Shown here: positions 16,753-35,589 of the stretch, piece by piece
Position numbering within the stretch: the stretch's first letter is position 1
How the letters are laid out: each line of letters starts with the position of its first letter
DNA from: Pseudeuparius sepicola
Taxonomy: Eukaryota > Arthropoda > Insecta > Coleoptera > Anthribidae
Reading direction: 5' to 3'
Assembly: GCA_963920635.1 (NCBI GenBank)
Contig: OY987299.1
Span: 63,346,692-63,410,691 of the forward strand
DNA length: 64,000 nt
Position numbers and translations under genes: made by a program
The notes under the pieces: generated by a model
Told to the model about the DNA's origin: nothing
Databases searched by the model: none
The model's input: only the letters and a program-made list of their open reading frames with translations

Positions 16753-16847
16753 AGTAGTGATGCAAAGCGGGTTCTGGGACAAAATGGCCGCCAAGGACGT
16801 TGTTGTTGCGAAGTCGCGATGGGGTGTTCAAGGTCGGCGTGGTTTCC

Positions 16848-17005
16848 GCGCAAGGTTTCTGGGAATCGCTTCAAGGTCAAGGGCGGGGTTTCCGAGAATC
16901 GCTTCAAGGTTAATTTCTGGGAATTGAAGGGGGTGTGGCTAGACTTCAAGGTTTCCGCGCTTCAAGGTTAATTTCTGGGAATCGCTTCAAGGTTGCTTCA
17001 AGGGG
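16848..17005. repeat. Subterminal cttcaaggt repeat array
   Basis: The core cttcaaggt, often in the larger unit tctgggaatcgcttcaaggt, recurs about seven times in 160 bp. The same array is present, inverted, in the right TIR (about 35340-35490). Position and duplication suggest a binding site for element proteins at the ends; this is inference. Confidence 0.7.
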
Positions 17006-17093
17006 GCTTAGAGGTCAAAGTGTGTGGCTTCTAGGAATTTTAGTGGGTGGGGTTTCAAAATCATTTCCTAGAATCCCCCACCCCTCTAGCTTT

Positions 17094-17136
17094 GATAAAA
17101 GACAGAGTTTGCTGTTTGGAGTTTCAGTAGCCGAAG
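17094..17136 (+). promoter_or_regulatory. Promoter of the TIR gene (left copy)
   Basis: GATAAAAG at 17094 is followed 32 nt later by a TTTCAGTAG initiator (A at 17126) and the ATG at 17137, leaving an 11-nt leader. The same promoter is present inverted in the right TIR. Confidence 0.6.
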
Positions 17137-17445
17137 ATGGCTTGCAGCAAAATGGATTTGGAAACCATCAACAAAGTTGGTTGCTTGTCTCAGAAACCGA
17201 CGGTAAAGTTAGTGGAATTGGGTGAAGGCGTGCCGATGAAAATTCTCTCTGGCAAGGTGGTGCAAACGACGTTCGGGGAGACCGTTTTGCTTGAGTTGGA
17301 GCATGGTGTCGTTTTCCTGCCAAACACGGAGGTGTTCAAGCCGTGCATCGAACATTTTTCCAGTGAAAAATACTCGCTGGTTTACAAAGGACAAGTGGAT
17401 ATGGGGAAAAACAAGGCCAATCAGTTTGAAATAGTGGAAAATTAA
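17137..17445 (+). CDS. TIR-encoded small protein, left copy
   Basis: A complete 102-aa frame from ATG 17137. It contains alternating hydrophobic strands with GKVVQTTFGETVLLELEHG and VVFLPNT, then YSLVYKGQ and NQFEIVE. That pattern fits a small beta-barrel, possibly an OB-fold, and is a common small protein of arthropod Polintons. Function is unknown; single-strand DNA binding is plausible but not shown. An identical copy is encoded in the right TIR (34896-35204). A diverged relative of similar size and pattern (FTFYTVLPQRF, FLMSLGPTEGRTTNFEF) sits inside the element at 24288-24599. It has no stops, in contrast to many interior genes. Confidence 0.75.
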   Translation: MACSKMDLETINKVGCLSQKPTVKLVELGEGVPMKILSGKVVQTTFGETVLLELEHGVVFLPNTEVFKPCIEHFSSEKYSLVYKGQVDMGKNKANQFEIVEN

Positions 17446-17575
17446 CATGGGGGAGTAACATGGGGGAATTAAAGTGGTAGAGTAACATGGAGGAATTAAA
17501 GTGGGGGAGTAACATGGGGGAATTAAAGTGGTGGAGTAACATGGAGGAATTAAAGTGGGGGATTAAAATGGAGAA
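17446..17575. repeat. Minisatellite after the TIR gene
   Basis: The units taacatgggggaattaaagtgg and taacatggaggaattaaagtgg alternate about six times, with ggtagag, gggggag or ggtggag linkers. The inverse is at about 34765-34905, with one variant unit (tacatgt). It lies just after the stop codon, in the presumed 3' UTR. Confidence 0.8.
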
Positions 17576-17700
17576 TTCTTCAAATAGAGTTGTAATTTGT
17601 GTTATAATCTTGTTTTAGTGATAAAACATGCTTAATAAAGAAATAGAATGTGTACTTCAAATAGTCTTGTAATTTGTGTTTTAATCTATATCATGTGAAT

Positions 17701-17895
17701 CCAAGGTCCCTAAAACTGAGGGCCCTTAAAAAAACTGAGGGCCCTTAAAAAAACTGAGGGCCCTTAAAGAAACTGAGGGCCCTTAAATAAACTGAGGGCC
17801 CTTAAAAAAACTGAGGGCCCTTAAAAAACTGAGGGCCCTTAAAAAACTGAGGGCCCTTAAAAAAACTGAGGGCCCTTAAAAACCTGAGAGCCCAC
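17701..17895. repeat. GGGCCC minisatellite, left side only
   Basis: About ten units of actgagggcccttaaaaaa, period about 20-23 bp, each centred on the palindrome aagggccctcagt or its complement. At the corresponding right-end place (34035-34070) there is a single degenerate unit next to the same ttctagaat sequence. The array therefore expanded only on the left. Confidence 0.85.
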
Positions 17896-18357: not shown

Positions 18358-18396
18358 TATAAATATATTTTCGTGCAAAGACCTGCATTCAGTCTA
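18358..18396 (+). promoter_or_regulatory. Promoter of the PLA2 gene
   Basis: TATAAATA at 18358 is followed 33 nt later by TCAGTC (A at 18391). The ATG at 18397 leaves a leader of only 6 nt. This decides the start: the frame is open upstream to 18373, but transcription probably begins after that point. Confidence 0.7.
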
Positions 18397-19170
18397 ATGT
18401 TATCATTCACAGGAGACGGTTTGGTTAATACCCTTATCAGTAATCTACCAGTTGAATTGCATGTTCCTGGATACCAATATTGCGGACCTGGAACTAAGCT
18501 AAACAAGAGATTAGCTAGGGGAGACCCTGGCATAAACCCTCTCGACGCTGCATGCAAGGAACACGACATAGAATATTCGAAATCTTCCTCTTTAGAGGAT
18601 CGACATAAAGCCGATCTAGTGTTAGAAAATAAAGCTTGGCAAAGAGTTAAGTCTAAGGACGCAAAACTAGGTGAAAAGGCAGCTGCTTGGTTTGTTACTA
18701 CAACAATGAAAACTAAACGCAAGTTAGGTATGGGTTTAAAAAAATCGTTCAAACGCGATATAGTGAAAAAGGTTGAAAAATCATTGAAAAAATCATTTAA
18801 CGGAAATCAACTTAATAATGAAAAAGGAATTAAGAAAACCACACTAGCTGCAATTAAAGCGGCACCTTTAGCAGTTAAAAAAGTAGGTGGAAAGAATAAA
18901 GTGCGAATCCCCAAAATAATTCCTTTTGAGGCGAGCGGTGGGTTTCTTCCTTTGATTCCAATCCTAGGTGCTTTGGGAGCTCTTGGATCGGTGGCAGGCG
19001 GTGCTAGCGCGATTGCTAAAACAGTTATCGCTGCGAAAGATATGCAGAAAAAGATGGAAGAACATAAACGTCATAACAAAGCGATGGAAGCAATCGGATC
19101 GGGGCTTTACTTGAGAAAAAACAAGCGAGGTTTTGGTTTATTTTTAAGGAAACAAAAAAACTCCCAGTGA
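18397..19170 (+). CDS. Phospholipase A2 virion protein with membrane-active segment
   Basis: A 257-aa frame, intact. Residues 28-32 (YCGPG) form the calcium loop. DAACKEHDIEY at 50-60 carries the catalytic His56-Asp57 pair and the paired Cys of the secreted/parvoviral-type PLA2 fold. A Lys-rich middle (about 108-170) follows, with repeated LKKSF. A Gly/Ala/Leu-rich hydrophobic stretch at about 182-213 (PLIPILGALGALGSVAGG) comes next, and a C-terminal GSGLYLRKNKRGFGLFLRK tail. In parvoviruses the PLA2 domain is exposed on virions and breaches endosomal membranes. The hydrophobic segment and tail recall the membrane-lytic minor proteins of adenovirus-like capsids (inference). It stands first in the structural gene block, before protease and capsid genes. 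Confidence 0.85.
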   Translation: MLSFTGDGLVNTLISNLPVELHVPGYQYCGPGTKLNKRLARGDPGINPLDAACKEHDIEYSKSSSLEDRHKADLVLENKAWQRVKSKDAKLGEKAAAWFVTTTMKTKRKLGMGLKKSFKRDIVKKVEKSLKKSFNGNQLNNEKGIKKTTLAAIKAAPLAVKKVGGKNKVRIPKIIPFEASGGFLPLIPILGALGALGSVAGGASAIAKTVIAAKDMQKKMEEHKRHNKAMEAIGSGLYLRKNKRGFGLFLRKQKNSQ

Positions 19171-19502
19171 AGCTACCCAAGAGACCATTAACTAACGTTG
19201 ACCTCGAAAAATTTGCCAGGAAATTAAAGTTGTTATATTTTAGAGGTGTATTCATGAGAGATGCACTTCCAAGCAAACCACATACGTATGAATCGGCAAT
19301 TATTAATTTAGATGTTAAAAACAATAGAGGCACTCACTGAAAAGATAATAATATTGTTGAATACTTTGATAGTTTCGGTAACTTAAAACCACCGAAGGAA
19401 CTTGTTAAATATTTAGGAAAAGTTAAGATTGTATATAATAACGATGCATATCAAAAATTTAATGACACTGTGGACACACTTTTGTCTCGAATTTCTTTAT
19501 AA
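19167..19502 (+). pseudogene. Adenain-like maturation protease, broken
   Basis: Starting at the overlap with the PLA2 stop, the frame reads KRPLTNVDLEKFARKLK, YFRGVFMRD and an NNRGTH motif. GTH supplies the catalytic His of adenovirus-type cysteine proteases (C48/C5 group). Directly after it is TGA (19338-19340) where Trp is expected. The frame then resumes with VEYFDSFGNLKPPKEL, which contains the catalytic Asp region. The CGH catalytic Cys (19469) lies in another frame. The gene therefore has at least one stop and one frameshift. No clear ATG was found. Its role would be cleavage of capsid precursors during virion maturation. Confidence 0.85.
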
Positions 19503-19532
19503 AAAGAGCTGACCGACTTAAAACTATTAGTC
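19498..19532 (+). promoter_or_regulatory. Promoter of the minor capsid gene
   Basis: TATAAAAA at 19498, then TTAGTC with its A at 19529 (31 nt), and ATG at 19533: a leader of 4 nt. Confidence 0.6.
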
Positions 19533-20237
19533 ATGTCTTTGTTATTCACGTTGAAAGGCTACAGCTCTGTGCTCTCGGTTGATTACAATAACCCAATTTA
19601 TTTAGACCCAACTTTACAATACGGCTTAGCATTGCTCGGGTTTTATTCATATAATACGATACCGAATATTGAGGCACCGAATAATAAATTTTATTTAATC
19701 GATCAAGCAAACGAACTGAAAGTTTTAGAAATACCCACAGGATCTTAGGAAATTGCTGCCATAGAGACAGCGATAATTAAAATTTTAAGAAATCTTAACG
19801 AAATACCTGATTTTTCATTGAAAGCCAATACTAATACTCTACAGTGTGAAATATACAGCGATAAATATACGATTGATTTTCGACCAAAAGACTCGATTGC
19901 CACATTGCTTGGTTATTCCAATCGTTTACTACCTCCACTAAGTGTCCACGCATCAGATTTACCGGTGAATATCGTCAAAACCAGAACAATACATATTGAC
20001 AGCAATTTAACCTCTGGAGCGTACTATAACAACAGACCTACTCATACTATTTACGAGTTTTCTCCTGAATGTAATCCGGGGGACGCCATAGACGAAACCC
20101 CCAGAAACCTACTTTACTTACCTGTCACTAAACGGGAAATAAATAATATAACCTTATCGATTTTGGATCAAAATTTTCAGTTAGTAAATTTCCGTGGAGA
20201 AGAAATAATTGTGAGATTAGAAGTAAAACCTTTGTAA
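19533..20237 (+). pseudogene. Penton-type minor capsid protein, one in-frame stop
   Basis: One frame of 235 codons interrupted by a single TAG at 19746-19748 (codon 72). Before the stop is SVDYNNPIYLDPTLQYGLAL and FYSYNTIPNI. After it come CEIYSDKYTIDF, LLGYSNRLL, VHASDLPVNI and VNFRGEEIIVRLEVKP. This series is the conserved core of the single-jelly-roll penton-like protein of arthropod Polintons, which would occupy the capsid vertices. Position between protease and major capsid gene agrees. The stop overlaps the next ATG (TAATG). Confidence 0.8.
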
Positions 20238-20434
20238 TGGGTCTAGTTTTCGGTGAGGGTCTCACATATAAAAGTGAGTTAAACCACTTTATAAACACAC
20301 TGTCACCTGAACCTCAGAAGCGTCAACATCGCAACCTGACACCTAAACCTAAAAGCATAAATATTTTAAAATCACTTGGATATAATGTCGTTGACACCAA
20401 ATGTATTCGACGTGTATCAAAGTCCAAAGTATGA
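20237..20434 (+). CDS. Small ORF linking penton and major capsid genes
   Basis: A 65-aa frame whose ATG overlaps the preceding stop as TAATG, an arrangement allowing reinitiation. It contains the segment RNLTPKPKSINILKSLGYNV; a short protein with a similar LTxxxxxFLKSLG motif is common next to capsid genes in arthropod Polintons (recalled, not searched). The frame runs 50 nt into the major capsid gene. TATAAAAG at 20267 lies inside it and may serve the downstream gene. Role unknown. Confidence 0.5.
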   Translation: MGLVFGEGLTYKSELNHFINTLSPEPQKRQHRNLTPKPKSINILKSLGYNVVDTKCIRRVSKSKV

Positions 20435-21611
20435 TGAGTCAATCCAACGCATAGAAAGCCGTACTTACTATCCTTTCATCAAGTCTTTTATGAATAATGA
20501 CATAATTGAAATAACAATTAACCAGGGAGATGCTTGGCTGTTAATGTACGATGCTGCAATTTTTATTAAAGGAGAAATAAAACCTACTCAAGGAGAAGGC
20601 ACTTGCGAATTAGTTAATAATGCAGCAGCTTTCTTCTTCGACTCTATATCTTACGAACTTAACGGACAAGAAGTAGATTCTGTGAGGGACCCCGGCATTT
20701 TAAGCAGTATCAGAGCGTATCTTTGCTACAACCCCACTGATGAAAAACACACCTCGAGTTGGTGGTACCCGGGGAAAAAAACCATTTTGAACAGAGACTC
20801 AACGTTCAGTTTTAGAGTTCCGCTTAAACACCTGTTTGGCATCTTTAACGATTACCAACATGCAATTTCTGGTAAACAAACAATACGGTTAACTAGAGCT
20901 CGAAATGACAAAAACTCTATATTGCTGGAACAAACACCTGGTACAACTCCAGATCTAACGGTTGAAGTAGTCATTACTAACATCGAGCTGAAAGTAAAAC
21001 ATATAATACCAAACGATAAAATTAAGTATAACTTATTGCAAGCCCTCAAGAGTAATAAACCCATCTTGATACCGTTTCGCAAATGGGAGTTACATGAATT
21101 ACCTAATCTGACCGTAAATGCAACCAAAGAAATATGGTCCGTTAAAACCTCTGCCACAGTAGAAAGCCCAAGGTTTGTTATTGTTGGCTTTCAGACCGAC
21201 CGCAAAGAAAATTCAAAAAAGGACCCGACATACTTTGATCATGTAGATATTTCCGACGTCCGCCTTATAATAAACGGTGAATACTTTCCGTTTGAACGCT
21301 TGCGGCAAGATTTCAATAGGGATTACTTGGAAGTTTACAATAATTACAGAGACTTCTACCCAAGCTTTATGAATACACGCGATAAGAGCCCACTACTTAA
21401 TTATGCTGACTTTAAAGATCGGGCGACGCTGTTCGTTATCGACTGCTCACATCGCAATGAAACAATTAAAATGAGCACTGTTGATGTTAAATTGGATATT
21501 GAGAGCTCTCAAGGATTTCCAGATAAGACTCATGCATATTGCATCATAATACATGACAGAGTCTTGGAGTATTTGCCCTTGAGCGAAACTGTAAGAAGCT
21601 ATATGATGTAA
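20385..21611 (+). CDS. Major capsid protein (double jelly roll)
   Basis: 408 aa from ATG 20385 (the frame is open a few codons further upstream, but without an ATG). N-terminal region with ESRTYYPFIKSF and NNDIIEITI; then FFFDSISYELNGQEVDSVRD, YCYNPTDE-like LCYNPTDEKH, and a C-terminal half with PRFVIVGFQTDRK, FDHVDISDVRLIINGEYFP and INxx-YADFKD-type elements. These are recurring motifs of the hexon-like major capsid protein of Polintons/adintoviruses, whose trimers build an icosahedral shell. The gene is uninterrupted, which is notable beside its broken neighbours. Confidence 0.85.
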   Translation: MSLTPNVFDVYQSPKYDESIQRIESRTYYPFIKSFMNNDIIEITINQGDAWLLMYDAAIFIKGEIKPTQGEGTCELVNNAAAFFFDSISYELNGQEVDSVRDPGILSSIRAYLCYNPTDEKHTSSWWYPGKKTILNRDSTFSFRVPLKHLFGIFNDYQHAISGKQTIRLTRARNDKNSILLEQTPGTTPDLTVEVVITNIELKVKHIIPNDKIKYNLLQALKSNKPILIPFRKWELHELPNLTVNATKEIWSVKTSATVESPRFVIVGFQTDRKENSKKDPTYFDHVDISDVRLIINGEYFPFERLRQDFNRDYLEVYNNYRDFYPSFMNTRDKSPLLNYADFKDRATLFVIDCSHRNETIKMSTVDVKLDIESSQGFPDKTHAYCIIIHDRVLEYLPLSETVRSYMM

Positions 21612-21623
21612 ACAGATCCCGGA

Positions 21624-21680
21624 TATAAATGTAGGGACATCAGCATCATACCAACAGTTTTATTCGAGAACTAAGTTAAG
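21624..21680 (+). promoter_or_regulatory. Promoter of the 21681 gene
   Basis: TATAAAT at 21624 with ACAGTTT (A at 21655) 31 nt downstream; ATG at 21681. Confidence 0.5.
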
Positions 21681-22163
21681 ATGAAAATTGCTGTAATAGA
21701 CATTCAAGGTTTCTCGGTGGAGAATGAGTTTTATCCCAAGGAATTGACAATTAAAATTAATGGGAAAATGATGCATATGGTTATAGCTCCCCCAAAAAGT
21801 TTTATGTCTCTTAGCAATTTAAATAAGAGGCACGTGCGAGTTATGGAAGAAAATTTTCTGGGGGTAAAATATTCAAGTGGACATGTTGAGTAGAACAAAT
21901 TGGTTGAAATACTGCAAACTACTCTACTAGACGTTCACATAGTTTACGTGAAGGGACATCAAAAAGAACGTTTTCTACGTGAAATAATCAACAATAAAGT
22001 GGTTGATGTGGGAAATTTGCAAAACAATTGGATAGAGGTGCCGCTATTTGAAAAAGACATTCCGATGTGTCTCCACCACAATGAAAATAAAAAATGGATA
22101 TGTAGCTTAAGAAATTGTGAAAAATTATATTCTTGGTTAGAAAAATACTTAATCGATTACTAA
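21681..22163 (+). pseudogene. Polinton protein starting MKIAVIDIQGF, one in-frame stop
   Basis: A 161-codon frame with a single TAG at 21891-21893. Motifs: KIAVIDIQGFSVENEFYPKE, VRVMEENFLGVKYSSGHVE before the stop, then VHIVYVKGHQKERFLREII and CLHHNENKKWICSLRNC. A related protein is widespread in arthropod Polintons. The VIDIQGF start and the later VYVKGxxK strand look like an RNase H-type or PIN-type nuclease fold with Asp at the first strand, but I cannot demonstrate an activity. AATAAA at about 22182 ends the transcript. Confidence 0.6.
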
Positions 22164-22258: not shown

Positions 22259-22678
22259 ATGATGTTGAGTGCAGAATACCTGTTACTTCATTCTCTGATT
22301 ATCAATAACATAATATACGTCTATAAACCGTATGACGTAAACGATGTTGCTATTTGTATGGATGATTCATTAAATTGCATTTCATTAACTCCAACACCTA
22401 CCACTGATGAAGTTGTAATGACAAATATACCAAGTAATATCAAACAGTATAAACTTCGAATGATATTTGAAAATGGTACGGTCGCTGACACAAAGTGGGT
22501 TACACCTATTTCTAAAACGTTAAATGAACAAGTTACAACAGGTCAATCCCTAGAAAGCGTGGTTTATTTTATTGCCACATGTTCCTCACTCTTGATTTTA
22601 AAATGGATGATTAAATTAATCCATAAGTTGGTAGAAAATCAGTGGATTAAAAAACTAACAACATTTGTGGAGCTATAG
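22259..22678 (+). CDS. Small putative membrane protein
   Basis: 139 aa from the first ATG (22259), although the frame is open from 22202. The N-terminus (YLLLHSLIINNIIYVY) is hydrophobic and could be a signal or anchor. A second hydrophobic helix near the C-terminus (VVYFIATCSSLLILKWMI) is followed by lysines. I do not recognise a family. It could be an envelope-associated or membrane-remodelling protein. AATAAA follows at about 22700. Confidence 0.55.
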   Translation: MMLSAEYLLLHSLIINNIIYVYKPYDVNDVAICMDDSLNCISLTPTPTTDEVVMTNIPSNIKQYKLRMIFENGTVADTKWVTPISKTLNEQVTTGQSLESVVYFIATCSSLLILKWMIKLIHKLVENQWIKKLTTFVEL

Positions 22679-23223: not shown

Positions 23224-24056
23224 ATGCAGTGCAGTGGGGCCAATATACTACAAGACATTATCATAACTGTAAGTTCAATGAAAAATATTATTTATCTTTA
23301 AACATTTTTATGTCTCATTTAATGATTTTTTAAATTATTCTCTCATTAAGTGATTTTTGGTTATTTGGAATATGAGAAAAAGACTATTCAAGAAAAAAGA
23401 AAAGACTTACTATTCATTTGCTCATAATTCAGTATTAATTTGAAAAGTCAAACAAAAATATATACTCAGATTTTTTCTCTTTGTTACAGCCATTGAACCA
23501 AAATAATGGTGATGTTGATTTATTTACCTTACTTGGAGGGCAACAAACCCAACCCGAACCCGCACCTCAACCATCTACTTCAAAGAATCCAACAAGGAGG
23601 GGCAAAGGCAAGGGGAAAAATATGTCCCTGTTGCAATCGGTGAGGGAGGATGACAACATAAGTGTCATCAGTGATGTGACTGTTGGAGGTAACGAAGAGT
23701 TCTTCAACACACAGCAAATCCGGGGGCAAAGTCCAACAAGCTATTTACACAAAGTTAGGGGACACGCAAACGTCTTCTGTAAAAGGAAGATCAGCGATAT
23801 AAAGGTGCAGAGAAATTCTCTCAAAGAGCAGCTAACCAAACTGGAAGCCAGGAAGAAAAATATTCTACAAAATATGGATAGATTAACGCGTGAAGAAACC
23901 CAAACCAATAGTCTCATGACAAAATTTAAAGAATTTTTTGATTTTGTTATGCAATTATATTTCCCTAATAAACGTATAATTTACCAATTTGATCATCATT
24001 TCTTAACCTACAACACATTAGTGACTAAGCAAAAAACAACATTTGATAATATCTGA
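23224..24056 (+). CDS. Intron-containing coiled-coil protein
   Basis: Exon 1 is 23224-23268 (15 codons from ATG), then GTAAGT at 23269. The acceptor tttgttacag ends at 23489, and exon 2 is 23490-24056, in phase 0. The product is about 203 aa: a Pro/Gln/Thr-rich region (about 35-55), a basic cluster TRRGKGKGKN, an acidic stretch (REDDNISVISDV), and a predicted coiled coil around KVQRNSLKEQLTKLEARKKN. It resembles a nucleic-acid-packaging or scaffold protein in composition, but I recognise no family. A second donor (aaaag|gtaagtat) lies just past the stop at about 24090, so the 3' part may be alternatively spliced. Confidence 0.65.
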
Positions 24057-24743: not shown

Positions 24744-25031
24744 ATGTCAACAGAAATTGGAATGGTAAGTGATGACATTATTAAAACGCTTGAAAAAGTG
24801 TTTACGCTTATTAATAATTCTGATGACGCTACTTTAGCACATTGGAAAAAAATAATAAATGTAAACATCCGGTTAGTTCATAAAGCATTGAAAAAGGCTG
24901 ACTGTAATCATGGCACTCGAATTAAATTGCAAACGAACTTGAGTCATTTGAAACGATTTAAAGTGTACTTAAAAAATTACAACACGTTGGAACAGGTCAA
25001 CGTAAGCGGGAAAGTAGAAGTGATAGGATAA
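24744..25031 (+). CDS. 95-aa ORF overlapping the PolB frame
   Basis: Starts at ATG 24744 with SDDIIKTLEKVFTLINNSDD, ATLAHWKKII, TRIKLQTNLSHLKRF and ends NVSGKVEVIG. Mainly helical, no recognised domain. Its last 70 nt overlap an open frame that leads without any ATG into the polymerase. The heptamer AAAAAAT at 24971-24977, in the right phase (A AAA AAT), lies inside the overlap and would shift ribosomes -1 into the PolB frame. It may be the true N-terminus of PolB, or a separate small protein. Confidence 0.5.
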   Translation: MSTEIGMVSDDIIKTLEKVFTLINNSDDATLAHWKKIINVNIRLVHKALKKADCNHGTRIKLQTNLSHLKRFKVYLKNYNTLEQVNVSGKVEVIG

Positions 25032-28000
25032 AGTGGGAGGATATAAAATCAATTTTTAATAATCGTATACGCACGGGTGTTATAATTAATTTAAAGCACA
25101 TAGATATTCTGCAGTTTTTTAAAGACGCGTTTTTTGTTTTTAAGACTCGCATTAATAGGATCTTAAGATCATTCAATATAATTAAAGTAAATGCTGTCTT
25201 TTGTGGTGAATTTATTAAAACGTCTGGAGATCAGGAGATACTTGAGAATAAGTATTTTAATACAAACAATGAAATAATCGATCAAGGAACACAGTTAAAA
25301 CAATGGTTTGAAAGCAACATTATTGAAAAAATTTTAGCTGCCATTGAGTCCTTCGAACATCAGGAGTCCGGTTGGACTCTTCACAGAATCTTAAGTTTGG
25401 AAGTTAACATAAACAAGGTAGAGATGGGAAACGGTGGTAGATCTTACATAAACCTTCCGGAATCAATACAATCTAAACACGCTTGTATTAACATTCAAAA
25501 TGACGATAATCTTTGTTTTGCTTGGAGTGTTGTATCAGCTCTATATCCACCTGTTGGAAGATCAAATCGTACATCCTCATACCCCCACCCTTCGACCGTT
25601 TTAAACCTAGGTAGCCTTGAATTTCCTGTAACTCTAAGCCAAATAGCAAAATTCGAAAACTGAATAATATATCGGTAAATGTGTATGTTCTAGAGTTAGT
25701 GTCAAATGAAGACAAATCAAGCTCTTTTAGAACTTCTCCGGCTCGCTTAACTAAAAACAAAATGGAAAAACATGCTAATTTACTTCTAGTTCAGGATACA
25801 TATTTTCCGAAAGTCGGTGAGCATGAAGCTCTCCCCATCGATGAATCATCAACCGAAATCAATTACCACTACTGTTGGGTTAAAAATTTATCGAGATTAA
25901 TAACATCCCAAACTAATAAACATAAAGGTAGGATGTTTGTTTGTGACAGATGTTTAAATTATTACTCATCCCAAGAAAAATTAAATGAACACATTGAATA
26001 TTGTCAAGATATAAACAACTGCAAAGTATCATTTCCGAAAAATAAGTATATTGAATTTAAAAATTATATCCATAAGGAAAAAGTGCCATTTATTATTTAT
26101 GCTGATTTTGAATCAATCCTAAAACCTTATGATGAATCTCAATGTTTAAAAACCGCTAGGTATCAAGAACATGAAGCGTTTAGCGCAGGCTACTATTTTA
26201 AATGTGATTATGACGATACATTATCTTTTTATAAGAGTTATCGTGGTATTGATTGCATGACTTGGTTTGCGAATGAAATGGAAAATATAGCACTCTCTGT
26301 TGCTTCAAAGTTAAAAAATAATGAGGCAATGAGTGACTCTATAAGTTTAAAAAATGCAACTGCTACGTGTCACATATGTGAAAAACCGTTTAATTCTAAC
26401 GATATAATAGTACGTGACCATGATCATATGACATCACGTTTTCGCGGATACGCACACCAAGCATGTAACTTAAATTACAGAAACTCCTTTGTAGTACCTA
26501 TAGTATTTCATAACTTTAGTGGGTACGACAGTCATTTTATTATAAGAGATCTCGCTAAAAAGCATAATGTGACATTGCTTCCAATAAACAAGGAAAAATA
26601 TATTAGTTTTACAGTTTCTGATACCGATACTGAAGTTAAATTTAGATTCATCGACTCCTTTAAATTTTTAGGCTTCTCTTTGGATACATTAGCATCGTCT
26701 CTCAATAAAGGGGACTTTATTAATACCCAAAATGAATTTAGTGACGTATCTTCGAACAATCTAGATCTGTTAACCAAAAAGGGGGTATTTTGTTATGATT
26801 ATATCGATGACATAAATAAACTTAATGAGAAGTGTTTACCACCAGTCGAGCAATTCTATAGCAAGTTAAACGATACTCACATTAGTCAAAGCGATTACAG
26901 ACATGCCCAGTTAGTTTGGGATAAATTTAATATTCAAAGTTTAGGTGAATATAGTGACCTATATCTCAAGACGGACATTATGTTACTTACCGATATCTTT
27001 CAGAACTTTAGGAAAACTTGTATAAAGAATTATGGCTTGGATCCGGCTTGGTACTACACTTTACCGGGATATACTTGGGACTGTATGCTTAAATATACTA
27101 GGTGTCGATTAGAAACCTTTCAAGATATTGATATATTAATGTTTTTTGAGAAAGGAGTGAGAGGGGGGATAAGCCAATGTTGTAATAGATATTCTGAAGC
27201 AAACAACAAATACATGAAAAATTATGATCCTAACAATCCTTCCAAATACTTACTTTATCTGGATGTAAACAATTTATACGGGTGGGCAATGGGGGAATCT
27301 CTTCCTTACGGCAACTTCCAATGGGTTGATACAAACATTAACGTGATGAATATTCCGGATAACAGTCCAGAAGGATACGTTTTAGAAGTCGATTTAGACT
27401 ATCCGGAAAATTTACATGACCCCCATAAAGACCTACCGTTTTGCGCAGAACATTCTAAACCATCAAATTCTAAACTTCCCAAGCTTATGACAACTCTCAA
27501 TTCAAAAGAAAAGTATGTTGTACACTACAGGGCTCTTAAACAAGCGTTAAGTCACGGTTTAACTTTAAAAAAGATTCATAGGGTTTTAAAATTTAGTCAG
27601 TCTGCCTGGCTAGCTCCTTACATTAAATTTAATACAGAATTGAGGACAAAAGCTAAGTTTAATTTTGAAAAAACAGTAATTAAATTGATGGTTAATGCTG
27701 TATACGGTAAGACCATGGAAAATATTCGCAAACATAGAAATGTAAAATTAGTTAGGAAATGGGAAGGTAGGTATGGAGCTAAGAATTTAATTGCTAGCCC
27801 GGCTTTTAACAGCCGATTAATTTTTGATACAGATTTAGTTGCAATTGAACTGAATAAAACTGAAATTGTTTTTACAAAGCCTCTGTACATCGGGATGGCT
27901 ATACTCGATATCTCAAAGACGTGTGTTTATAATTTTCATTATGATTACATGTTGCAAAAATATTCAACTGACCAGTGTAAACTACTTTATACGGACACCG

Positions 28001-28485
28001 ATAGCTTACTTTATGAATTAAAATGTGATGACGTGTACGATGAAGTCATAAAGCGAGACTTGCATCGTTTTGACACAAGTGATTATTCAGTTGCTAATCA
28101 ATATAATGTACCACTTGTAAATAAAAAAGTACCAGGTCTTATGAAAGATGAACCTAATGGAAAAATAATGACTCACTTTGTTGGCCTTAGGTCAAAAATG
28201 TACACGTTTCTGATTGAAGGTGAGCAATGTATTAAAAAATCAAAGGGGATTAAGTATGGTGTTGTTAAGAATTATTTAACTTTCGATGATTATGTAAATT
28301 GCCTATTTAAGAAAAAAGAAAAGACCGCTACCCAATGCACTATTCGTTCATTTGCTCATAATGTTTTCAGTATTAAACAAAACAAAATTGCACTCAGCCC
28401 TTTTGATGATAAGCGATACTTAATTAATAACCACCCAATACTTCATGTATTCCATGTAGCACCAAGAATTTATTCAAAGATGTGA
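24962..28485 (+). pseudogene. polB: Protein-primed family B DNA polymerase, frameshifted
   Basis: The frame opens at 24962 with no ATG and runs to a stop at 25661-25663 (WEDIKSIF, VNAVFCGEF, SGWTLHRILSLEVNINK, CFAWSVVSALYP). The main part continues in another frame from about 25657 to 28485, so there is a one-base frame change near 25,655. In the 934-codon main part: a C2H2-like finger at about 82-105; ExoI YADFESI (139); an HNH/endonuclease VII-like CHICEKPF...RDHDH at about 229-262; ExoII NFSGYDSHF (277); ExoIII LKTDIMLLTDI (429); polymerase motif A YLDVNNLYGWAM (526), motif B KLMVNAVYGKTMEN (667) and motif C YTDTDS (769). All catalytic residues are present. It would replicate the linear genome from a terminal protein primer. 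Confidence 0.93.
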
Positions 28486-28569: not shown

Positions 28570-29247
28570 TTAATAAAACCTCCTCCTATACAAATCAGCT
28601 AATACAAACTCCTCGTTGAATGAGAGAAGCTCAAAAACACAGTATACATTAATATTATCTGATAGAGTACATAGGAATTTTATAATATCTATAGTATTTA
28701 TATTATAGTTATATTTTAATAACAAATCATTAACTTCATCTAACATGTTATAATAAAAATCCAATAAGTTATATTTTAATATTAAATTAATTTTTGAAGT
28801 TATTTTACAATCAATTGTAAGCAATTCCATTACATCGTTAGCAGTGAAATAAAAATTAATATCACCTTTAGAAAGCACAATCATCAAATAGTTGACACCT
28901 GGGTACATGCTCAATTTCAAATTGGAGCTGAATTCTTTTGGTGGTATTGCAACATCTTCACCCAATCTTTCAAGGATTTTGTTTAATTCCACTGTAAACT
29001 GGAACCATTCAAAACAGTCCATGGATATAGGATTTGACGGATCCAGCAGGTTTATAATTTGCACTGCTGGTTTGAAGAATCGTAGGGGGCTGAGTCCACA
29101 GTTTACCACATACAGATTTTCCGGCTTGAGCACAAATTGTGTACTTAGCAACAGCTGCTTTTCATTGTGGACCGCTTCATCATAACCATTCAAAATACGA
29201 TTGCCCTCGTTATGTTCGCTGCTAGTACTGTACCCCGATTCACTCAT
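28570..29247 (-). CDS. Unknown 225-aa Polinton protein
   Basis: Intact frame from ATG 29247, which begins 4 nt after the integrase stop. Ser/Glu-rich start (SGYSTSSEHNEG), then FVLKPENLYVVNCGLSPLRF, ISMDCFEWFQFTVELNKILERL and MYPGVNYLMIVLSKG. The C-terminal half is rich in Leu, Asn and Tyr and probably helical. No recognised domain. It is last in the leftward gene series. Confidence 0.6.
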   Translation of the reverse strand: MSESGYSTSSEHNEGNRILNGYDEAVHNEKQLLLSTQFVLKPENLYVVNCGLSPLRFFKPAVQIINLLDPSNPISMDCFEWFQFTVELNKILERLGEDVAIPPKEFSSNLKLSMYPGVNYLMIVLSKGDINFYFTANDVMELLTIDCKITSKINLILKYNLLDFYYNMLDEVNDLLLKYNYNINTIDIIKFLCTLSDNINVYCVFELLSFNEEFVLADLYRRRFY

Positions 29248-29251
29248 GGTG

Positions 29252-30195
29252 TCAAACTACATCTGTGGCCCTTATCCAGGAGTCATGTGTTTTATCGAAA
29301 CCCAACCAGCGAATCAACACTTTATCCCCCCTCCTTCTTAAAACTTTCTCCACAAGGTAAACATTTGGATTTGCAGCTTTTTGCAATTCCTCGCTGTAAA
29401 AGCCACCCTTTATCGGGTTCCCCTGCACATCTTCAAGCAAATAAGTTATGGGTGTGGTTTTTTGAATTTTAGCAATTTTAAATAATTCCTTGCTCCAATT
29501 AGGTGTGTAGCCTTTCTCAAAAACATGCTTGGCTTTGCTGATGCGAACCATATCGCCCTTTTTGAACTTTGATATTTTAAAAACTGTAGGATAGCTGAAG
29601 GTTTTAAGTAAAGCAGCCTCGTTACTTTTATTTACATCTTTTGGCCTCATTCCAGTAGTTCTATGTCTTCTGTTATTGTATTTATCAACAATTGTAGATA
29701 ATATATCAATCCACTTATATGTACCATTTAGGCTAAAGTATTTAAATAATTGTTCCTTTAACGTACGTATAACCCTCTCCACTATTGCTGCTTTTGTTAT
29801 GCTAAGGTACTATAATGATTAATTTTAAACTTTTTCATTAGATTTTGAAAATGGGAGTTGTAGAATTCTTTTCCATGATCACTTTGCAAGTTTCGTGGGT
29901 GTCGTTGAGAGTTTTTCAGTATTTTATCAAAGGCCTTTGCCACTTCTTCACCAGTCTTAGATTTAAGGGCTTCACACCAAACGTACTTGGAAAAACAGTC
30001 AATTACTACAAGAATAAACTTAAATTTGTTATTGTGAGCTCTATATTGATCTAACTGGGCGAGGTCAACCTGCCAGAGGTCATCCAATCCTTTAATAATG
30101 GTCCGACGACGAGGGTATTTTTTCAATGCTCGTCTGTGTAATTCGTTCACAATTTGAATCTTTTCTTTACTATGCTTTGTTTTCGTTGCTTTCAT
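29252..30195 (-). pseudogene. Retroviral-type integrase with chromodomain, frameshifted
   Basis: The first part (30195-29797) has PRRRTIIKGLDDLWQVDLAQL with the first catalytic Asp, FILVVIDCFSKYVW and LQSDHGKEFYN with the second Asp. The second part (29782-29252), one base out of frame, has the catalytic Glu in AAIVER, then YNNRRHRTTGMRP and KFKKGDMVRISK (SH3-like end). A C-terminal chromodomain (VYLVEKVLRRRGDKVLIRWL, DSWI) completes it. The break is near 29,790-29,800, between the second Asp and the Glu, so neither half is active alone. This enzyme makes the 6-bp target duplications; the chromodomain may steer insertion to chromatin. It overlaps the upstream gene by 26 nt. Confidence 0.92.
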
Positions 30196-30475
30196 TATGT
30201 TTTTGATATTCCAAAACCCTTATTCTATACAAAATTTCACGCAGTTGTTTTTCTTGAATTTCAATATGTGAATGTAAGCCTTTTTTTATTTCAGAAAGTG
30301 AATCATCGACGTATTTTTTGTTAGTTGCGTCACCTAATGCTTTCGGAGTCTTAAGATTGCTGATTTTTAAATTTCTCGCATCTATATGACCTTCAGGAGT
30401 AAAAGTTAAACCGCCTGTGTAAACACTTGGCCGTGAATAAATTCTTGAATACTGACCGAACTTATTAATACTCAT
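30170..30475 (-). CDS. Fibre-like small protein (DATNKKYVD motif)
   Basis: 101 aa from ATG 30475. It contains LTFTPEGHIDARNLKISNLK, then GDATNKKYVDDSLSEIKKGL and a C-terminal coiled coil (IEIQEKQLREILYRIRVLEY). The 'L-x-x-x-K-x-P-x-x-x-x-DA-x-NKKYVD' module is well known from phage tail-fibre proteins, where it marks the shaft-to-head joint, and recurs in arthropod Polintons. A vertex fibre or spike role is inferred. Promoter: TATAAATAC at 30517-30509 (- strand), CCAGTC with A at 30484, 9-nt leader. Confidence 0.6.
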   Translation of the reverse strand: MSINKFGQYSRIYSRPSVYTGGLTFTPEGHIDARNLKISNLKTPKALGDATNKKYVDDSLSEIKKGLHSHIEIQEKQLREILYRIRVLEYQKHNESNENKA

Positions 30476-30517
30476 GTTGTGACTGGTGATAACCTTGTAA
30501 TTGCGCTTGTATTTATA

Positions 30518-31362
30518 TTAAGAAATGATGTGAGCCTCTTTTAATTCTGTCTCTATAGCGGTTATTTCATTATCGTGAGAGGTGTTTCCAGCATTTTTAG
30601 AAGCAATAAGAAGCATTAATCTATCCACTAATTCATTCACATCATCCCAATAAATATACTCGATTGGTTTTTTATTGTAAATTAAATGCATACCAGTACC
30701 CGAACGTGTTTTTGGCTTAGCTGGAGATTTTCCTGGTATGAAAATTGGCCTAATAATGTTAAAATACTTTTTGCGCTTTTTAATTTACCTCTGGTATCAA
30801 GATGCGCCCCAGTTAATTTTAAAATCTCGATATATTTTGCAAAATCTTGGTCTGTGTATTTTGGATCATTATAAAAAATCAAATCGTATAGTCCTGATGT
30901 TCCCTCAAAATTCTTTCCCTTAACAATTATATCTCCACTACTATCAAAATCAATATTTTTACCGGCTAGCAAAAATTTTGATTGAGATGCATCATAAACG
31001 GGGCCATATACTTTATCAATTTTCTTTGAATTATCATGGTAGTCTTGTATATATTGTTTTGCTATATTAGGATATGAAACATCTTCAGGCTCACTATTTT
31101 GTTCATCAGAATCGAAAAAATCAACCTCCTTTTTGAACTCTGGGCTTTCCGGCTCCTCTTTTTTATATTTTTTTGCGAAGTTAGGTAGTTTGATTTTGCT
31201 CAGAGATTGCGTAACTGGTGAGAACATTTTTTTAATCGATTCGTCTTCTTCAATTTTACCTAATTTGAGTGCCACATACTTTTTTCTAACAGCGCGAGCG
31301 AGCTCACTGACTTTCTTCGCACGTTGCATTTTAAATAATTGATCTTGCGTTGTTGATGGCAT
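30518..31362 (-). pseudogene. DUF8207-like Polinton protein, frameshifted near its end
   Basis: Frame 31362-30682 begins with a basic coiled region (KVSELARAVRKKY), an acidic linker (FFDSDEQNSEPEDVSYPN) and then NIDFDSSGDIIVKGKNF and GTSGLYDLIFYNDPKYTDQD. The last motif is the hallmark of a recurrent Polinton protein I know as DUF8207. Its usual end (KPIEYIYWDDVNELVDRL, NTSHDNEI) is present but in another frame down to 30518. The break lies near 30,785 beside an A-run. Function unknown; probably a virion or scaffold protein. TATATAAAG for this gene (31404-31396) lies inside the end of the ATPase gene. Confidence 0.75.
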
Positions 31363-31389
31363 GATTCAAAATTAGTTAATCTAGCTGAG

Positions 31390-32079
31390 TTACAGCTTTA
31401 TATACTTATTAAATCCATTTCTGTAACGCCCATTATTTAACTGAAAATCTTTTACAATAACTAAAGTACCGTAAGCATTATTCCAGCACTCGCTACACAT
31501 AACTTTAAATTGATCATAAGTTAAATCCGGAGACACGTGCTCATCAAAAACATGACGTAAGTTCATATCATCCTGTCGAAATAGTACAATAACATTACAG
31601 TTATCGCGGACCAGCTGTTTAGGTATTTTCGAGTAAGTCTGACAAAGATATATGACATCAACGCCTTTGTGCCGTCCCATCGAATAAAACTCACGTATCT
31701 TATCTTGCCGATCACAACTCACATCATCGAAAATAAAAACTGAATTTTCCAAGGCCTCGGATGGTGGAATGACATCATCATTAGCTTTAAATGGAAAATA
31801 TCCGATTTTAGGAACTTTTTTTAAGACATCCTGAAGTAACTAATATTTTGATTGATATAAACTTTTACTATAAACGTAAATATTCTCAAACTTCAAACTA
31901 TTCATGTTAAATATTAAACTTAAAAGGGTATTTGTTTTGCCACAGTTGCTAGGTCCTATGAAAGCAGCCCTAACGGACTCTGGAAACAGATTACCATGCT
32001 TAGATGTCTGTCTGATCCCTATATCTGCAACGTCTAAGTTGTCAATAGGGAGAGAGCTTTGTTGTTGTCTTATTTGCAT
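31390..32079 (-). pseudogene. FtsK/A32-like genome-packaging ATPase, one in-frame stop
   Basis: From ATG 32079: AAFIGPSNCGKTNTLLSLIF gives Walker A (GPSNCGKT). A single TAG at 31840-31842 interrupts the frame. After it come VFIFDDVSCD (Walker B) and VDVIYLCQTYSKIPKQLVRD, containing the sensor Gln, and VIVLFRQDDMNLRHVF. The order and length fit the A32-type ATPase of Polintons, which pumps the genome into the capsid. The stop separates Walker A from Walker B, so the gene would be inactive unless read through. Confidence 0.88.
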
Positions 32080-32206
32080 TTTGAACTCTTTTAAAATTAA
32101 TAAGACATTTGATGTCTATTTATACTTTCAAAGTTATCTTGTAAAAAAATCAGTGGAGGGACTATATATAACTTAGAATTCATTGTGGATATGCCTATTC
32201 GTAACT
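32080..32206. promoter_or_regulatory. Divergent promoter region
   Basis: 127 bp between the leftward ATPase gene and the rightward 32207 gene. TATATATAAC at 32163-32172 lies 30 nt before CTATTC (A at 32197) and ATG 32207. TATAAATAG on the - strand (32124-32116) faces the ATPase gene. Confidence 0.55.
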
Positions 32207-32924
32207 ATGAGTGACTTTCTTAATATTGACTTTGAAGCGTATCTCGCCTCACACAACGTGTTCTTTCAGCATTGCCGTGGTGATTCATTGACTTATATAC
32301 TACAAAAACAAGATTTTATTATCCCAAACGAGTGTTTTGAAAAAGTTGCCAAGCAAGAACTCCATGGAATTTGTACCTATCATTTAATGTTGGAAAAAAA
32401 AACAGCATATTGATAATTATGGGAGACAAATCATTAATATATGTGACGCAGAAAACATTGAACAAATAAATTATTTTACACTCGATGGACTTCTGAAGAA
32501 ACATGGTTTGGACTCTGGGCTCCAATATAAGATGTATATTCTCAACATATTAAGTGAAGAATACCTTTTAGAACAGTCGTATCCTACCAACAACTTAACT
32601 TTAAATTATAGGGATTTATTAATATGTATTGATGATTTTATTTGTGCGGCCGCTTATCTTGCAAGATATGAAAATTTGAGAGATTTTACAAAGGCACTAA
32701 ATGATATGAAATTAACCTATAAATTTCAACCTGTACATAATGAGCGTCATATGCTTATTTTGAAATGGCTACAAAAGAATATAAAAAAATATGAAGAGGA
32801 TTCAGAAGCCCTTTTAGGGTGGCAAAGCGGTCCCTGCTGTGGAAACTGGCCATCTGTGGAAATAAATGACTACAAAGCAACAATTTCGTTACTAAATAAC
32901 CTTGTAGATAATACTTCTGTTTAA
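32207..32924 (+). pseudogene. Unknown Polinton protein, frameshift in a poly-A run
   Basis: From ATG 32207 (SDFLNIDFEAYLASHNVFF, HCRGDSLTYILQKQDFI) the frame ends at 32411-32413. The rest (DLLICIDDFICAAAYLARYE, LILKWLQKNIKKYEED, LLGWQSGPCCGNWP) continues in another frame to 32924. The two meet at a run of nine A (32394-32402). That makes a slip in sequencing, or ribosomal or polymerase slippage, as likely as a true mutation. No domain recognised. AATAAA follows at 32928. Confidence 0.5.
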
Positions 32925-34721
32925 AATAAAACTACTTTTAACATACTTGTCTTATTTTGTTCCTTAAACAAGATACCCATTTATGTGCCTACCAAATTCA
33001 AATTATAGCGACTATGTCGGTATATTGGTTAAGCATGTTATTATTCATTCGATTGTGTCATATATTATTGCCTCTAAAATGTGTTTGTATTACTGTGACC
33101 CAACGTATGCATGAATTCAATAGCGGTGTTACGAACGTGAGCGTATAACCGAATATAAAACTCGATTGGTTACCGAGGTTCGGCTAAGTTAAAATCTGGA
33201 CTGCTTTTTAATTCAGATGTTTAAAACACTCGCCCATAGCCTGCAAATATTTAAATTGATATAAATTACACAACAGATGATTCATAAAGTGCCGCAAACT
33301 CTCGGTTATTCATATACAGAGACTGTTGCTTTAATTCAAGCTATATAATAACAAAATATAAGCTATGTGAGTCACTCTCGGATATTATAAGTTTATAAAA
33401 TAAAAAGCGATGTTGTGTAACTTGACACCAGTTAATTATATTATCGGTCGCGCGATAATTTCAATCCAGCGCCGCCTGGATATAATTACCACACGTAACT
33501 TGGATCTGCCGAGCGCAAATGTATATAGCTTATATAAACATTATTAGACCTTTTCACGGCGGGGACCGATGCATTGGAATCGAAGTTTGGCTTACTTAAT
33601 GACGCTACAGAAATATGAATGCTGACACATATTAACAGCAACAATTTTTGTTGTTGTCCAGCAACGGCTTTTACAAGGTCGAGATTGAAATGTGAGGACT
33701 TTGCATATATTACCACATCGTTTGAACGATTATGCCACCGTTGTTTAATTTACAGCAAATAAAGATAGTTTGAAGTTTCAGATATTCTGTGAGTCATTGT
33801 CCCATGCCGCGAGAACGTCGACCTGGGTCGTCCGATAATTGTTTGGACATGCGGTGTGATCGATGCTATAGAGCTACATGCTACACCACGTGGATCATTA
33901 TGCTACCAGTTTTGTTTTAGTTTGGAATAAAGTTTGGAATTCTTCGTTTTATTTACCAGTTTCGATGTAGTAACATAATACTGGGTCCTTTATTAAAAGA
34001 ATTAGGAGATATTTTCTACAGTAATTCTAGAATCTTTGTGGGTCCTCAGTTTTTGGTCCCTTACATCACAGATTTTTCTACAGCTTAAAACACAAAGCAA
34101 GAGTTTTTATTTTGATTGTAGTACAAAGTAATTCCCCGAACGCCATGCGGTCACCTTTTCCCCACCGCTGAATTCGCTCCGTCGCGTCGCAGAGAAACGT
34201 TCTGGTCGGTCGGCCGGAGTTGGGCTCGCTAGTCGCTTCCCGCGGCAGACGCTATGCGGCCGGCGGAGATGGTGCGTCATTCCCGCAGTATAGACATCGC
34301 AGCCCGTTAGCTGGGCACCGCGGCGTTTGGCAAGGTCTTGCCAAGCGTCACTGCTCTCGGTTGGGCGATAGTGTAAACATATCCCATGCGGCGATAATAT
34401 GTTTACGCTACCAATTTCGTTATTTAATTCATCTGGGTCGCTGCATTCAAGCGGTGGACTGTGCTCAACTTGTACATCAAGCGTGTGAGGTCGGGCTAGC
34501 GTCAACATATTATCGTCGCATGGGATATGTATACACTACCAGTTTTGTTTAATTACAGCAAATAAAGTTTGAGATTCTGAGGATGACGTATTTTACTACT
34601 ACGTTGCTCATAATAAAGTACTTGGTGATGTTCCTTTATTAAAATAATTATGAGATATTTTCTAACATTTAAAACACGTCACCATGATGTTTTTCTATTC
34701 CTTTATTAAATATTTTTTATG
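32925..34721. other. Right subterminal region without genes
   Basis: 1.8 kb with no supported gene. It holds three diverged direct repeats (about 33735-33790, 33890-34022, 34535-34664), each with an aataaagttt and most with a cctttattaaaa segment. It also holds a GC-rich patch (34130-34370), the inverted repeat described separately, and a faded TIR extension around 33950-34075. Open frames at 33486-33716 and 34107-34508 lack protein features. Confidence 0.5.
34371..34536. repeat. 38-bp inverted repeat with internal hairpins
   Basis: Arm 34371-34408 (gtgtaaacatatcccatgcg...) pairs with 34499-34536, with three mismatches over 38 bp and a 90-nt loop. Each arm is itself partly palindromic (aacatat...atatgtt), so alternative small hairpins or a cruciform are possible. 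Confidence 0.8.
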
Positions 34722-35589
34722 ACTAAAACAAGATTATAACACAAATTACAACTCTATTTGAAGAATTCTCCATTTTAATCCCCCACTTTAATTCCTCCAT
34801 GTTACTCCACCACTTTAATTCCCCCATGTTACTCCCCCACTTTAATTCCTACATGTTACTCTACCACTTTAATTCCCCCATGTTACTCCCCCATGTTAAT
34901 TTTCCACTATTTCAAACTGATTGGCCTTGTTTTTTCCCATATCCACTTGTCCTTTGTAAACCAGCGAGTATTTTTCACTGGAAAAATGTTCGATGCACGG
35001 CTTGAACACCTCCGTGTTTGGCAGGAAAACGACACCATGCTCCAACTCAAGCAAAACGGTCTCCCCGAACGTCGTTTGCACCACCTTGCCAGAGAGAATT
35101 TTCATCGGCACGCCTTCACCCAATTCCACTAACTTTACCGTCGGTTTCTGAGACAAGCAACCAACTTTGTTGATGGTTTCCAAATCCATTTTGCTGCAAG
35201 CCATCTTCGGCTACTGAAACTCCAAACAGCAAACTCTGTCTTTTATCAAAGCTAGAGGGGTGGGGGATTCTAGGAAATGATTTTGAAACCCCACCCACTA
35301 AAATTCATAGAAGCCACACACTTTGACCTCTAAGCCCCCTTGAAGCAACCTTGAAGCGATTCCCAGAAATTAACCTTGAAGCGCGGAAACCTTGAAGTCT
35401 AGCCACACCCCCTTCAATTCCCAGAAATTAACCTTGAAGCGATTCTCGGAAACCCCGCCCCTTGACCTTGAAGCGATTCCCAGAAACCTTGCGCGGAAAC
35501 CACGCCGACCTTGAACACCCCATCGCGACTTCGCAACAACGACGACCTTGGCGGCCATTTTGTCCCAGAACCCGCTTTGCATCACTACT
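34722..35589 (-). repeat. Polinton right TIR
   Basis: Inverse of the left TIR, including a second copy of the 102-aa gene and the two repeat arrays. The near identity of the two TIRs contrasts with the number of broken genes inside. That suggests either recent insertion of an already damaged copy, TIR homogenisation, or assembly errors in the interior. Confidence 0.92.
34896..35204 (-). CDS. TIR-encoded small protein, right copy
   Basis: Same 102-aa protein as at 17137-17445, encoded inward from the right TIR, with its own GATAAAAG and TTTCAGTAG promoter upstream (about 35247-35205). Two identical copies would double the gene dose and would be kept alike by TIR recombination. The gene and TIR may be co-maintained because the TIR must be intact for replication by protein-primed PolB. 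Confidence 0.75.
   Translation of the reverse strand: MACSKMDLETINKVGCLSQKPTVKLVELGEGVPMKILSGKVVQTTFGETVLLELEHGVVFLPNTEVFKPCIEHFSSEKYSLVYKGQVDMGKNKANQFEIVEN

What the first reader, a model, noticed from the sequence alone, without database searches (positions are those of the whole stretch)
16753..35589. Complete 18.8-kb adintovirus-like Polinton with exact ends and empty target
Both termini, the 6-bp ATGCCC duplication, two TIRs of about 867 bp and a near-full Polinton/adintovirus gene set including a PLA2 virion protein are all visible. The uninterrupted target module occurs elsewhere in the window. This is the most complete virus-like system here and may be an undescribed lineage.
Basis: partly seen in the sequence, partly recalled or inferred. 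Interest (0 to 1): 0.9.

Follow-up and report, generated by a model that had tools for sequence, protein, structure and literature searches.

The report
Decayed beetle-type Polinton with gene-bearing ends
This is one copy of a large virus-like mobile element (a Polinton) in an insect genome: its ends and insertion scar are intact but several of its genes are broken, and it belongs to a family of many copies that carry an unusual small gene inside both ends.

Summary
Window 16753-35589 (18,837 bp) has AGTAGT...ACTACT ends, inverted repeats of 896/897 bp (98.8%) and a 6-bp ATGCCC duplication. Uninterrupted copies of the target lie elsewhere in the window. It is a Polinton/Maverick: MCP, PLA2, PolB, integrase and A32-type ATPase were matched. 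"Complete" is true of its structure only: candidate protease, candidate minor capsid, PolB, integrase, ATPase and one more ORF are interrupted. The MCP falls among proteins whose named members are from beetles. PLA2 genes are already published for insect Mavericks (PMC5803895).

The family adds more. Of 11 pairs of ends tested in the 769-Mb genome, 9 have perfect, different 6-bp duplications. Each inverted repeat encodes a conserved 102-aa protein predicted to be OB-fold-like; its top, weak, Foldseek hit is the PRD1 single-strand binding protein P12. The outermost ~330 bp differ by about 30% between two subfamilies whose sequence further in differs by about 1-2%, which points to swapping of terminal (origin) modules. 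Whether it is an adintovirus could not be tested.

The parts
16747..16752 (.). left target-site duplication ATGCCC
35590..35595 (.). right target-site duplication ATGCCC
16753..17648 (+). left terminal inverted repeat (896 bp), begins AGTAGT
34693..35589 (-). right terminal inverted repeat (897 bp), ends ACTACT
16753..17082 (+). outer terminal module (about 330 bp) that differs strongly between subfamilies; mirrored at about 35260-35589
17137..17445 (+). TIR-encoded ORF, 102 aa, predicted OB-fold-like
34896..35204 (-). second copy of the TIR-encoded ORF, 102 aa
17440..17577 (+). 27-bp minisatellite inside the TIR (mirror 34764-34901)
17712..17893 (+). 19-bp tandem array (9.7 copies) just inside the left TIR only
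18397..19170 (+). parvovirus-type phospholipase A2 protein, 257 aa, open
   Evidence: PF08398 E 3.5e-12
19131..19502 (+). candidate adenain-type protease, interrupted by in-frame stops; assigned by position and recalled motif context, no significant Pfam match
19503..20237 (+). candidate minor capsid (penton) gene, interrupted by an in-frame stop at 19746-19748; assigned by recalled likeness, no Pfam match
20385..21611 (+). double jelly-roll major capsid protein, 408 aa, open
   Evidence: PF21738 E 1.2e-70
21675..22163 (+). ORF of unknown function, interrupted by an in-frame stop at 21891-21893
22259..22678 (+). ORF of 139 aa, no significant family match
23622..24056 (+). ORF of 144 aa, possible coiled coil (Pfam matches below cut-off only)
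24962..25663 (+). probable N-terminal piece of PolB, in another frame from the main ORF (frame break near 25.62-25.66 kb); assigned by recalled likeness, no Pfam match
25762..28485 (+). family B DNA polymerase, 907 aa open; zinc finger and endonuclease VII-like matches below Pfam cut-off
   Evidence: PF03175 E 1.4e-23 on 26500-28482
28570..29247 (-). ORF of 225 aa, no family match
29252..30219 (-). retroviral-type integrase in two frames (frame break at 29797-29809)
   Evidence: rve PF00665 E 2.4e-14; weak Chromo E 0.039, below cut-off
30170..30475 (-). ORF of 101 aa, fibre-like by eye, no significant Pfam match
30682..31362 (-). ORF of 226 aa, no significant Pfam match
31390..32115 (-). A32-type packaging ATPase, interrupted by an in-frame stop at 31840-31842
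   Evidence: PF04665 E 6.8e-06 (above cut-off) and 0.011 (below) on the two pieces
32388..32924 (+). ORF of 178 aa, no family match
9177..13316 (-). inverted duplicate of the filled locus without the element (ATACCC in place of ATGCCC at the site; about 0.9 kb extra)
11359..11723 (+). another uninterrupted target copy with one ATGCCC at the site

Best explanation
An integrated, partly decayed copy of an insect Polinton/Maverick from a large, recently amplified family. Steps shown here: integrase-type insertion with a 6-bp duplication into one arm of an inverted host duplication; a gene set of virion and replication genes; loss of several reading frames; many sister copies. Steps inferred: the linear genome is copied from its ends by a protein-primed PolB, the TIR-encoded OB-fold-like protein coats displaced single strands, capsid genes (with PLA2 for passage through membranes) allow packaging and entry, and the integrase inserts new copies. 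The two TIRs are kept alike by replication, which would also let a foreign terminal module acquired at one end spread to the other.
For: Ends, TIRs and duplication. AGTAGT...ACTACT plus a 6-bp duplication is a published Maverick signature (PMC8097293, passages). Families: MCP PF21738 E 1.2e-70, PLA2 PF08398, rve, A32 ATPase, PolB PF03175. MCP kin: 357 proteins at E <= 0.001, 120 listed; all 35 listed rows that bear an organism name are of genera that I recall as beetles; tree of 110 rows. Family: 61 TIR matches with 40 of 541 candidates scored; 9 of 11 pairs with perfect duplications; 150 TIR-ORF rows (150 of 1017 candidates scored) give 57 convergent pairs within 50 kb, 45 of an estimated 15-21 kb and 12 of 19,575-19,579 bp. 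MCP DNA is 99-100% identical over the matched parts in 3 of 4 pieces fetched from sister copies.
Against: Protease and minor capsid were assigned by position and recalled likeness only. At least six genes are interrupted, so this copy cannot be taken as autonomous. No expression, excision or particle data. Two of 11 tested pairs lack a perfect duplication. One of four fetched pieces held no MCP match (L072) and one (L070) lacks about 0.2 kb of the gene. Four viral-contig scans found no relative. MCP, PolB and integrase copies in the genome could not be surveyed because the tool stayed busy.
Confidence: 0.94

Rival explanations
1. A recently endogenised exogenous adintovirus, and not a resident transposon family.
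For: Virion genes including PLA2; an MCP with relatives in many unnamed assemblies; TIR divergence of about 0.6-1.1% points to a young insertion.
Against: Many paired copies of differing TIR identity sit in the same genome, as expected of a resident family; scans of viral contigs with MCP, PolB and TIR ORF gave no relative. The two readings are not exclusive.
Confidence: 0.2
2. The sharp divergence of the outer TIR reflects very fast or episodic local evolution (slippage, mutation at replication ends, diversifying selection), not swapping of terminal modules.
For: The outer region is rich in insertions and deletions, and a graded series exists: the main C clade differs less from A than B does (30-bp windows 0.67-1.00 identical over bases 1-330), and L028 differs from B by 10.9% and from A by 31%. 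The interior of the main C clade was not measured.
Against: A uniform fast rate predicts a steady ratio of outer to inner divergence; it is about 1.3 within B (2.1 against 1.58%, 15 pairs), about 4 for B-L028 (10.9 against 2.65%, 6 pairs) and about 19 for A-B (29.6 against 1.53%, 12 pairs). Non-coding DNA at 900-1640 is not fast (A-B 2.1, B-B 1.4%).
Confidence: 0.3
3. The TIR ORF is a chance open frame carried along by TIR conservation.
For: No significant Pfam match; dN/dS within the genome is only moderately low (median 0.34 over the 205 of 406 pairs with dS > 0.05, maximum 0.95).
Against: Nine homologues of 99-102 aa exist in unnamed assemblies at 41-49% identity over 94-95% of the length. 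147 of 150 genome copies listed have no stop. Median DNA identity is 98-99% in the ORF and 47-83% in the flanking TIR stretches over 26 loci.
Confidence: 0.06

Closest known systems
Insect Mavericks Sf Maverick 1 and 2 of Spodoptera frugiperda (PMC5803895; passages and section 11 part 1 seen)
   Same: PLA2-bearing CAP of about 258 aa, A32-type ATPase, rve integrase with chromodomain, PolB with an endonuclease VII-like stretch, a ~404-aa ORF of MCP size and a ~158-aa ORF.
   Different: No TIR-encoded gene in the part that I read; there eight small ORFs run in tandem, while here genes lie in opposed blocks. Sequence identity to those elements was not measured here.
Vertebrate Mavericks (PMC8097293; passages seen)
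   Same: (AGT)2//(ACT)2 ends, 6-bp target duplications, mostly degraded copies, large amplification in a few genomes.
   Different: Here an insect genome (inferred), a PLA2 gene and a TIR-encoded ORF; I did not check that paper for these genes beyond the passages.
Adintoviruses (Starrett et al. 2021, not held, recalled; Drosophila-associated adintoviruses in PMC8363768, passages seen)
   Same: PolB, integrase, capsid and packaging ATPase together; a protease too if the broken candidate here is one.
   Different: The Drosophila-associated ones are 13-15 kb assemblies; sequence relation was not testable here.
PRD1 single-strand binding protein P12 (PDB 9gfq, 9i86), for the TIR ORF only
   Same: Top Foldseek match (9gfq, E 0.012, probability 0.96), from a phage whose genome PMC8276246 (passages) treats as protein-primed.

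Membership tests
Polinton/Maverick | AGT-type ends, long TIRs and 6-bp target duplication | tested here: met
   signature as in PMC8097293 (passages)
Polinton/Maverick | family B DNA polymerase of the organellar/viral type | tested here: met
   PF03175 E 1.4e-23; frame break in its N-terminal part
Polinton/Maverick | retroviral-type integrase | tested here: met
   PF00665 E 2.4e-14 on one piece; gene frame-broken
Polinton/Maverick | A32-type packaging ATPase | tested here: met
   PF04665 E 6.8e-06, above its cut-off; in-frame stop
Polinton/Maverick | double jelly-roll major capsid protein | tested here: met
   PF21738 E 1.2e-70
Polinton/Maverick | minor capsid (penton) protein | tested here: inconclusive
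   candidate ORF before MCP; no Pfam match
Polinton/Maverick | adenain-type cysteine protease | tested here: inconclusive
   broken candidate by motif context; no significant Pfam match
Adintoviridae | hallmark proteins closer to adintovirus references than to other Polintons | not testable with these tools
   no named adintovirus reference at hand; paper not held
OB-fold single-strand DNA-binding protein (TIR ORF) | OB-fold | tested here: inconclusive
OB-fold single-strand DNA-binding protein (TIR ORF) | binds single-stranded DNA | not testable with these tools
   needs a binding assay

The most novel reading that the evidence does not exclude
This Polinton family encodes its own OB-fold single-strand DNA-binding protein inside both terminal repeats (two copies per genome). 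Its lineages exchange the outermost ~330 bp, the presumed protein-primed origin, as a module that ends about 50 bp before that gene, with the change copied to both ends. That would supply a replication protein that I know of in no Polinton and a natural record of origin swapping.
Probability: 0.32. Interest if true: 0.72.

Novelty: new variant of a known kind. Interest (0 to 1): 0.5.

Why it matters
An ordinary Polinton copy would matter little. The family matters because many copies in one genome make it possible to ask how these elements replicate. A conserved gene inside the repeats is a candidate for a strand-protecting protein; [quoted passage not shown] The mosaic ends give a direct test of how two inverted ends are kept identical and how origins change.

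Tried and rejected
A first model of the TIR ORF from two sequences (pLDDT 53.6) gave structure matches of E 0.24 or more only; it was replaced by the ten-sequence model.

A first check of target duplications read the minus-strand loci the wrong way round and showed none, not even this element's; one search reads them correctly. In one search the right end of C1:96872868-96891179 was shifted by 3 bases because its match began at base 4; it lacks the last bases and a duplication. The 11 pairs are those with both ends among the loci L009-L038; other pairs were not tested.

Idea rejected: that the TIR ORF alone is exchanged between lineages. PLA2 and non-coding DNA inside the element are about as alike as the ORF, so it is the outer module that stands out.

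Idea rejected: that the host is Sitophilus oryzae because of its genome size (PMC8576890, passages). Near-identical named MCPs would be expected and none was listed, though records of the window's own genome may be left out.

No match: Rfam at gathering scores; viral contigs with MCP, MCP alignment, TIR ORF alignment and PolB; phages with PolB; solved structures by sequence with PolB, MCP and TIR-ORF profile. PHROGs with five proteins gave weak matches, the best to endonuclease VII families in PolB. PolB scanned as the whole 907-aa ORF missed PF03175; the 661-aa part matched it.

Rows dropped: 11 of the 120 listed MCP hits by length before the tree, P0004 (68% identity, partial) among them; the tree is the quick method with SH-aLRT only. 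Of 30 TIR loci, the 9 whose fetched flank gives a PLA2 match were used. There L010 distorts the PLA2 column (A-A 11%, A-B mean 6.3%), its PLA2 match ending at residue 119; against L009 alone the six B loci differ by 1.1-2.0% in PLA2. Outer distances depend on the alignment: 24-25% over bases 1-384 pairwise, 30% over 1-330 in the multiple alignment, where the single A-A pair shows 4.2%. Terminus types go by the first bases: L028 has C-like first bases but groups with B in the outer tree, and L025/L029 have B-like first bases but group elsewhere.

Print searches on TIR genes, single-strand binding proteins and terminal recombination in Polintons listed 20 of 47, 12 of 82, 15 of 53 and 12 of 39 papers; none of those listed reports these by title or by the start of its abstract. 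Full texts were not read for this, and most subscription journals are not held. PMC11071308, PMC11071296 and PMC3671162 were seen as passages; other listed papers only in listings.

Full report
What is there. The element spans 16753-35589 (18,837 bp). The left junction reads ATGCCC|AGTAGTGATG and the right CATCACTACT|ATGCCC. The inverted repeats align over 897 columns at 98.8%, with ten substitutions and one indel, five of the substitutions crowded in the innermost ~30 bp.

Target. The element sits in an array of related inverted host repeats. The joined host flank matches six uninterrupted places in the window. Four hold one ATGCCC at the site and one holds ATACCC; in the sixth neither string was found. 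The longest empty match lies in an inverted duplicate at 9177-13316, which differs from about 3.2 kb of host DNA around the element by 25 mismatches plus gaps and holds about 0.9 kb more. The simplest order is duplication first, then insertion into one arm. A TIR divergence of 0.6-1.1% fits a young insertion, of the order of a million generations if an insect mutation rate is assumed (recalled rate, inference).

Genes. Plus strand: TIR ORF, PLA2 protein, candidate protease, candidate minor capsid, MCP, several unknown ORFs, PolB and, near the right end, another unknown ORF. Minus strand, from the right: the second TIR ORF, ATPase, unknown ORF, short fibre-like ORF, integrase, unknown ORF. Pfam supports PLA2 (3.5e-12), MCP (1.2e-70), rve (2.4e-14), A32 ATPase (6.8e-06) and PolB (1.4e-23 on its C-terminal part). 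Protease and minor capsid rest on position and recalled likeness, with no significant Pfam match.

Decay. In-frame stops interrupt the candidate protease, the candidate minor capsid, the ORF at 21675-22163 and the ATPase; frame breaks interrupt PolB in its N-terminal part and the integrase. MCP, PLA2 and both TIR ORFs are open. This copy is structurally complete but cannot be called functionally complete. Sequencing error as the cause of some breaks is not excluded.

Relatives. The MCP search returned 357 proteins and listed the best 120. The four best are unnamed assembly proteins at 78, 66, 64 and 68% identity (the last partial), and all 35 listed rows with an organism name are of genera that I recall as beetles. 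In a quick tree of 110 rows (109 of the 120 listed plus this one; P0004 dropped by length) the MCP groups with the first three at an SH-aLRT of 100 for the four. So it is a branch within known beetle-type Polintons.

Family in the host genome. The window lies in a 769-Mb genome in 16 contigs. A TIR search scored 40 of 541 candidates and gave 61 matches. Of 11 pairs with both ends fetched, this one included, 9 have perfect 6-bp duplications, all of different sequence; by their first 14 bases all 11 have the same kind of terminus at both ends, one right end being incomplete. The TIR-ORF search scored 150 of 1017 candidates: 147 of the 150 rows without stops, all at 89-100% identity. These rows make 57 convergent pairs within 50 kb, 45 of an estimated 15-21 kb, and 12 pairs of 19,575-19,579 bp (lengths assume the same distance from ORF to terminus as here). 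The equal lengths suggest a very recent burst (inference). Counts are lower bounds, since only part of the candidates was scored.

Terminal modules. Most termini fall into three kinds by their first 16 bases, with a few variants that do not match the outer tree. In the nine loci whose flank gives a PLA2 match, the outer 330 bp differ by 29.6% between A and B (12 pairs) and by 2.1% within B (15 pairs). The next segment, 331-690, differs by 1.53 and 1.58%, and non-coding 900-1640 by 2.1 and 1.4%; the minisatellite between them varies in length. PLA2 differs by 1.1-2.0% between L009 and the six B loci. A direct A-B outer alignment has identity 0.70, against 0.43 on average and 0.49 at most for 20 letter shuffles, so the modules are homologous. 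MCP DNA is 99.05% (L071) and 99.3-99.7% (L070, with about 0.2 kb of the gene missing) identical in two type-B copies and 100% in a type-A copy (L069); the fourth piece held no match. A boundary near base 330 with equal inner distances points to exchange of the terminal module, followed by spread to the other end. Against this, the series is graded: L028 differs from B by 10.9%, and the main C clade stands nearer to A than B does. But the ratio of outer to inner divergence runs from about 1.3 to 19, which a steady fast rate does not explain. The interior of the main C clade was not measured.

Mechanism. Shown: insertion with 6-bp duplication, gene content, decay, many copies, mosaic termini. 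Inferred: protein-primed copying from the ends, strand coating by the TIR-encoded protein, packaging, PLA2-aided entry as proposed for Polintons in PMC4642659 (passage), and re-integration.

Verdict. What may be new is the gene inside the repeats and the swapping of termini.

Noticed in passing
36577-37000: A repeat of about 424 bp with 39 further matches at 98-100% identity on many contigs (40 of 1398 candidates scored): probably a young non-autonomous transposon.
   Followed up: no
38317-39270: ORF of 317 aa matching P-element/THAP-type transposase domains (PF21789 E 8.8e-11; Tnp_P_element_C below cut-off).
   Followed up: no
63280-63864: ORF with a DDE_3 match just under its cut-off (E 4.4e-06), perhaps a Tc1/mariner-like remnant.
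   Followed up: no
7021-16752: Nested inverted-repeat array of host repeats at about 85-99% identity, several arms carrying the same target site.
   Followed up: partly
34369-34538: A 42-bp inverted repeat (93%) with 86 bp between its arms next to the right TIR, possibly a small nested insertion.
   Followed up: no
17712-17893: A 19-bp tandem array lies just inside the left TIR boundary only, so the element is asymmetric there.
   Followed up: no
L012 and L010 (C11:37905934-37924483): The copy nearest to this one by its ends lies in the opposite gene orientation, and its PLA2 match stops at residue 119.
   Followed up: no
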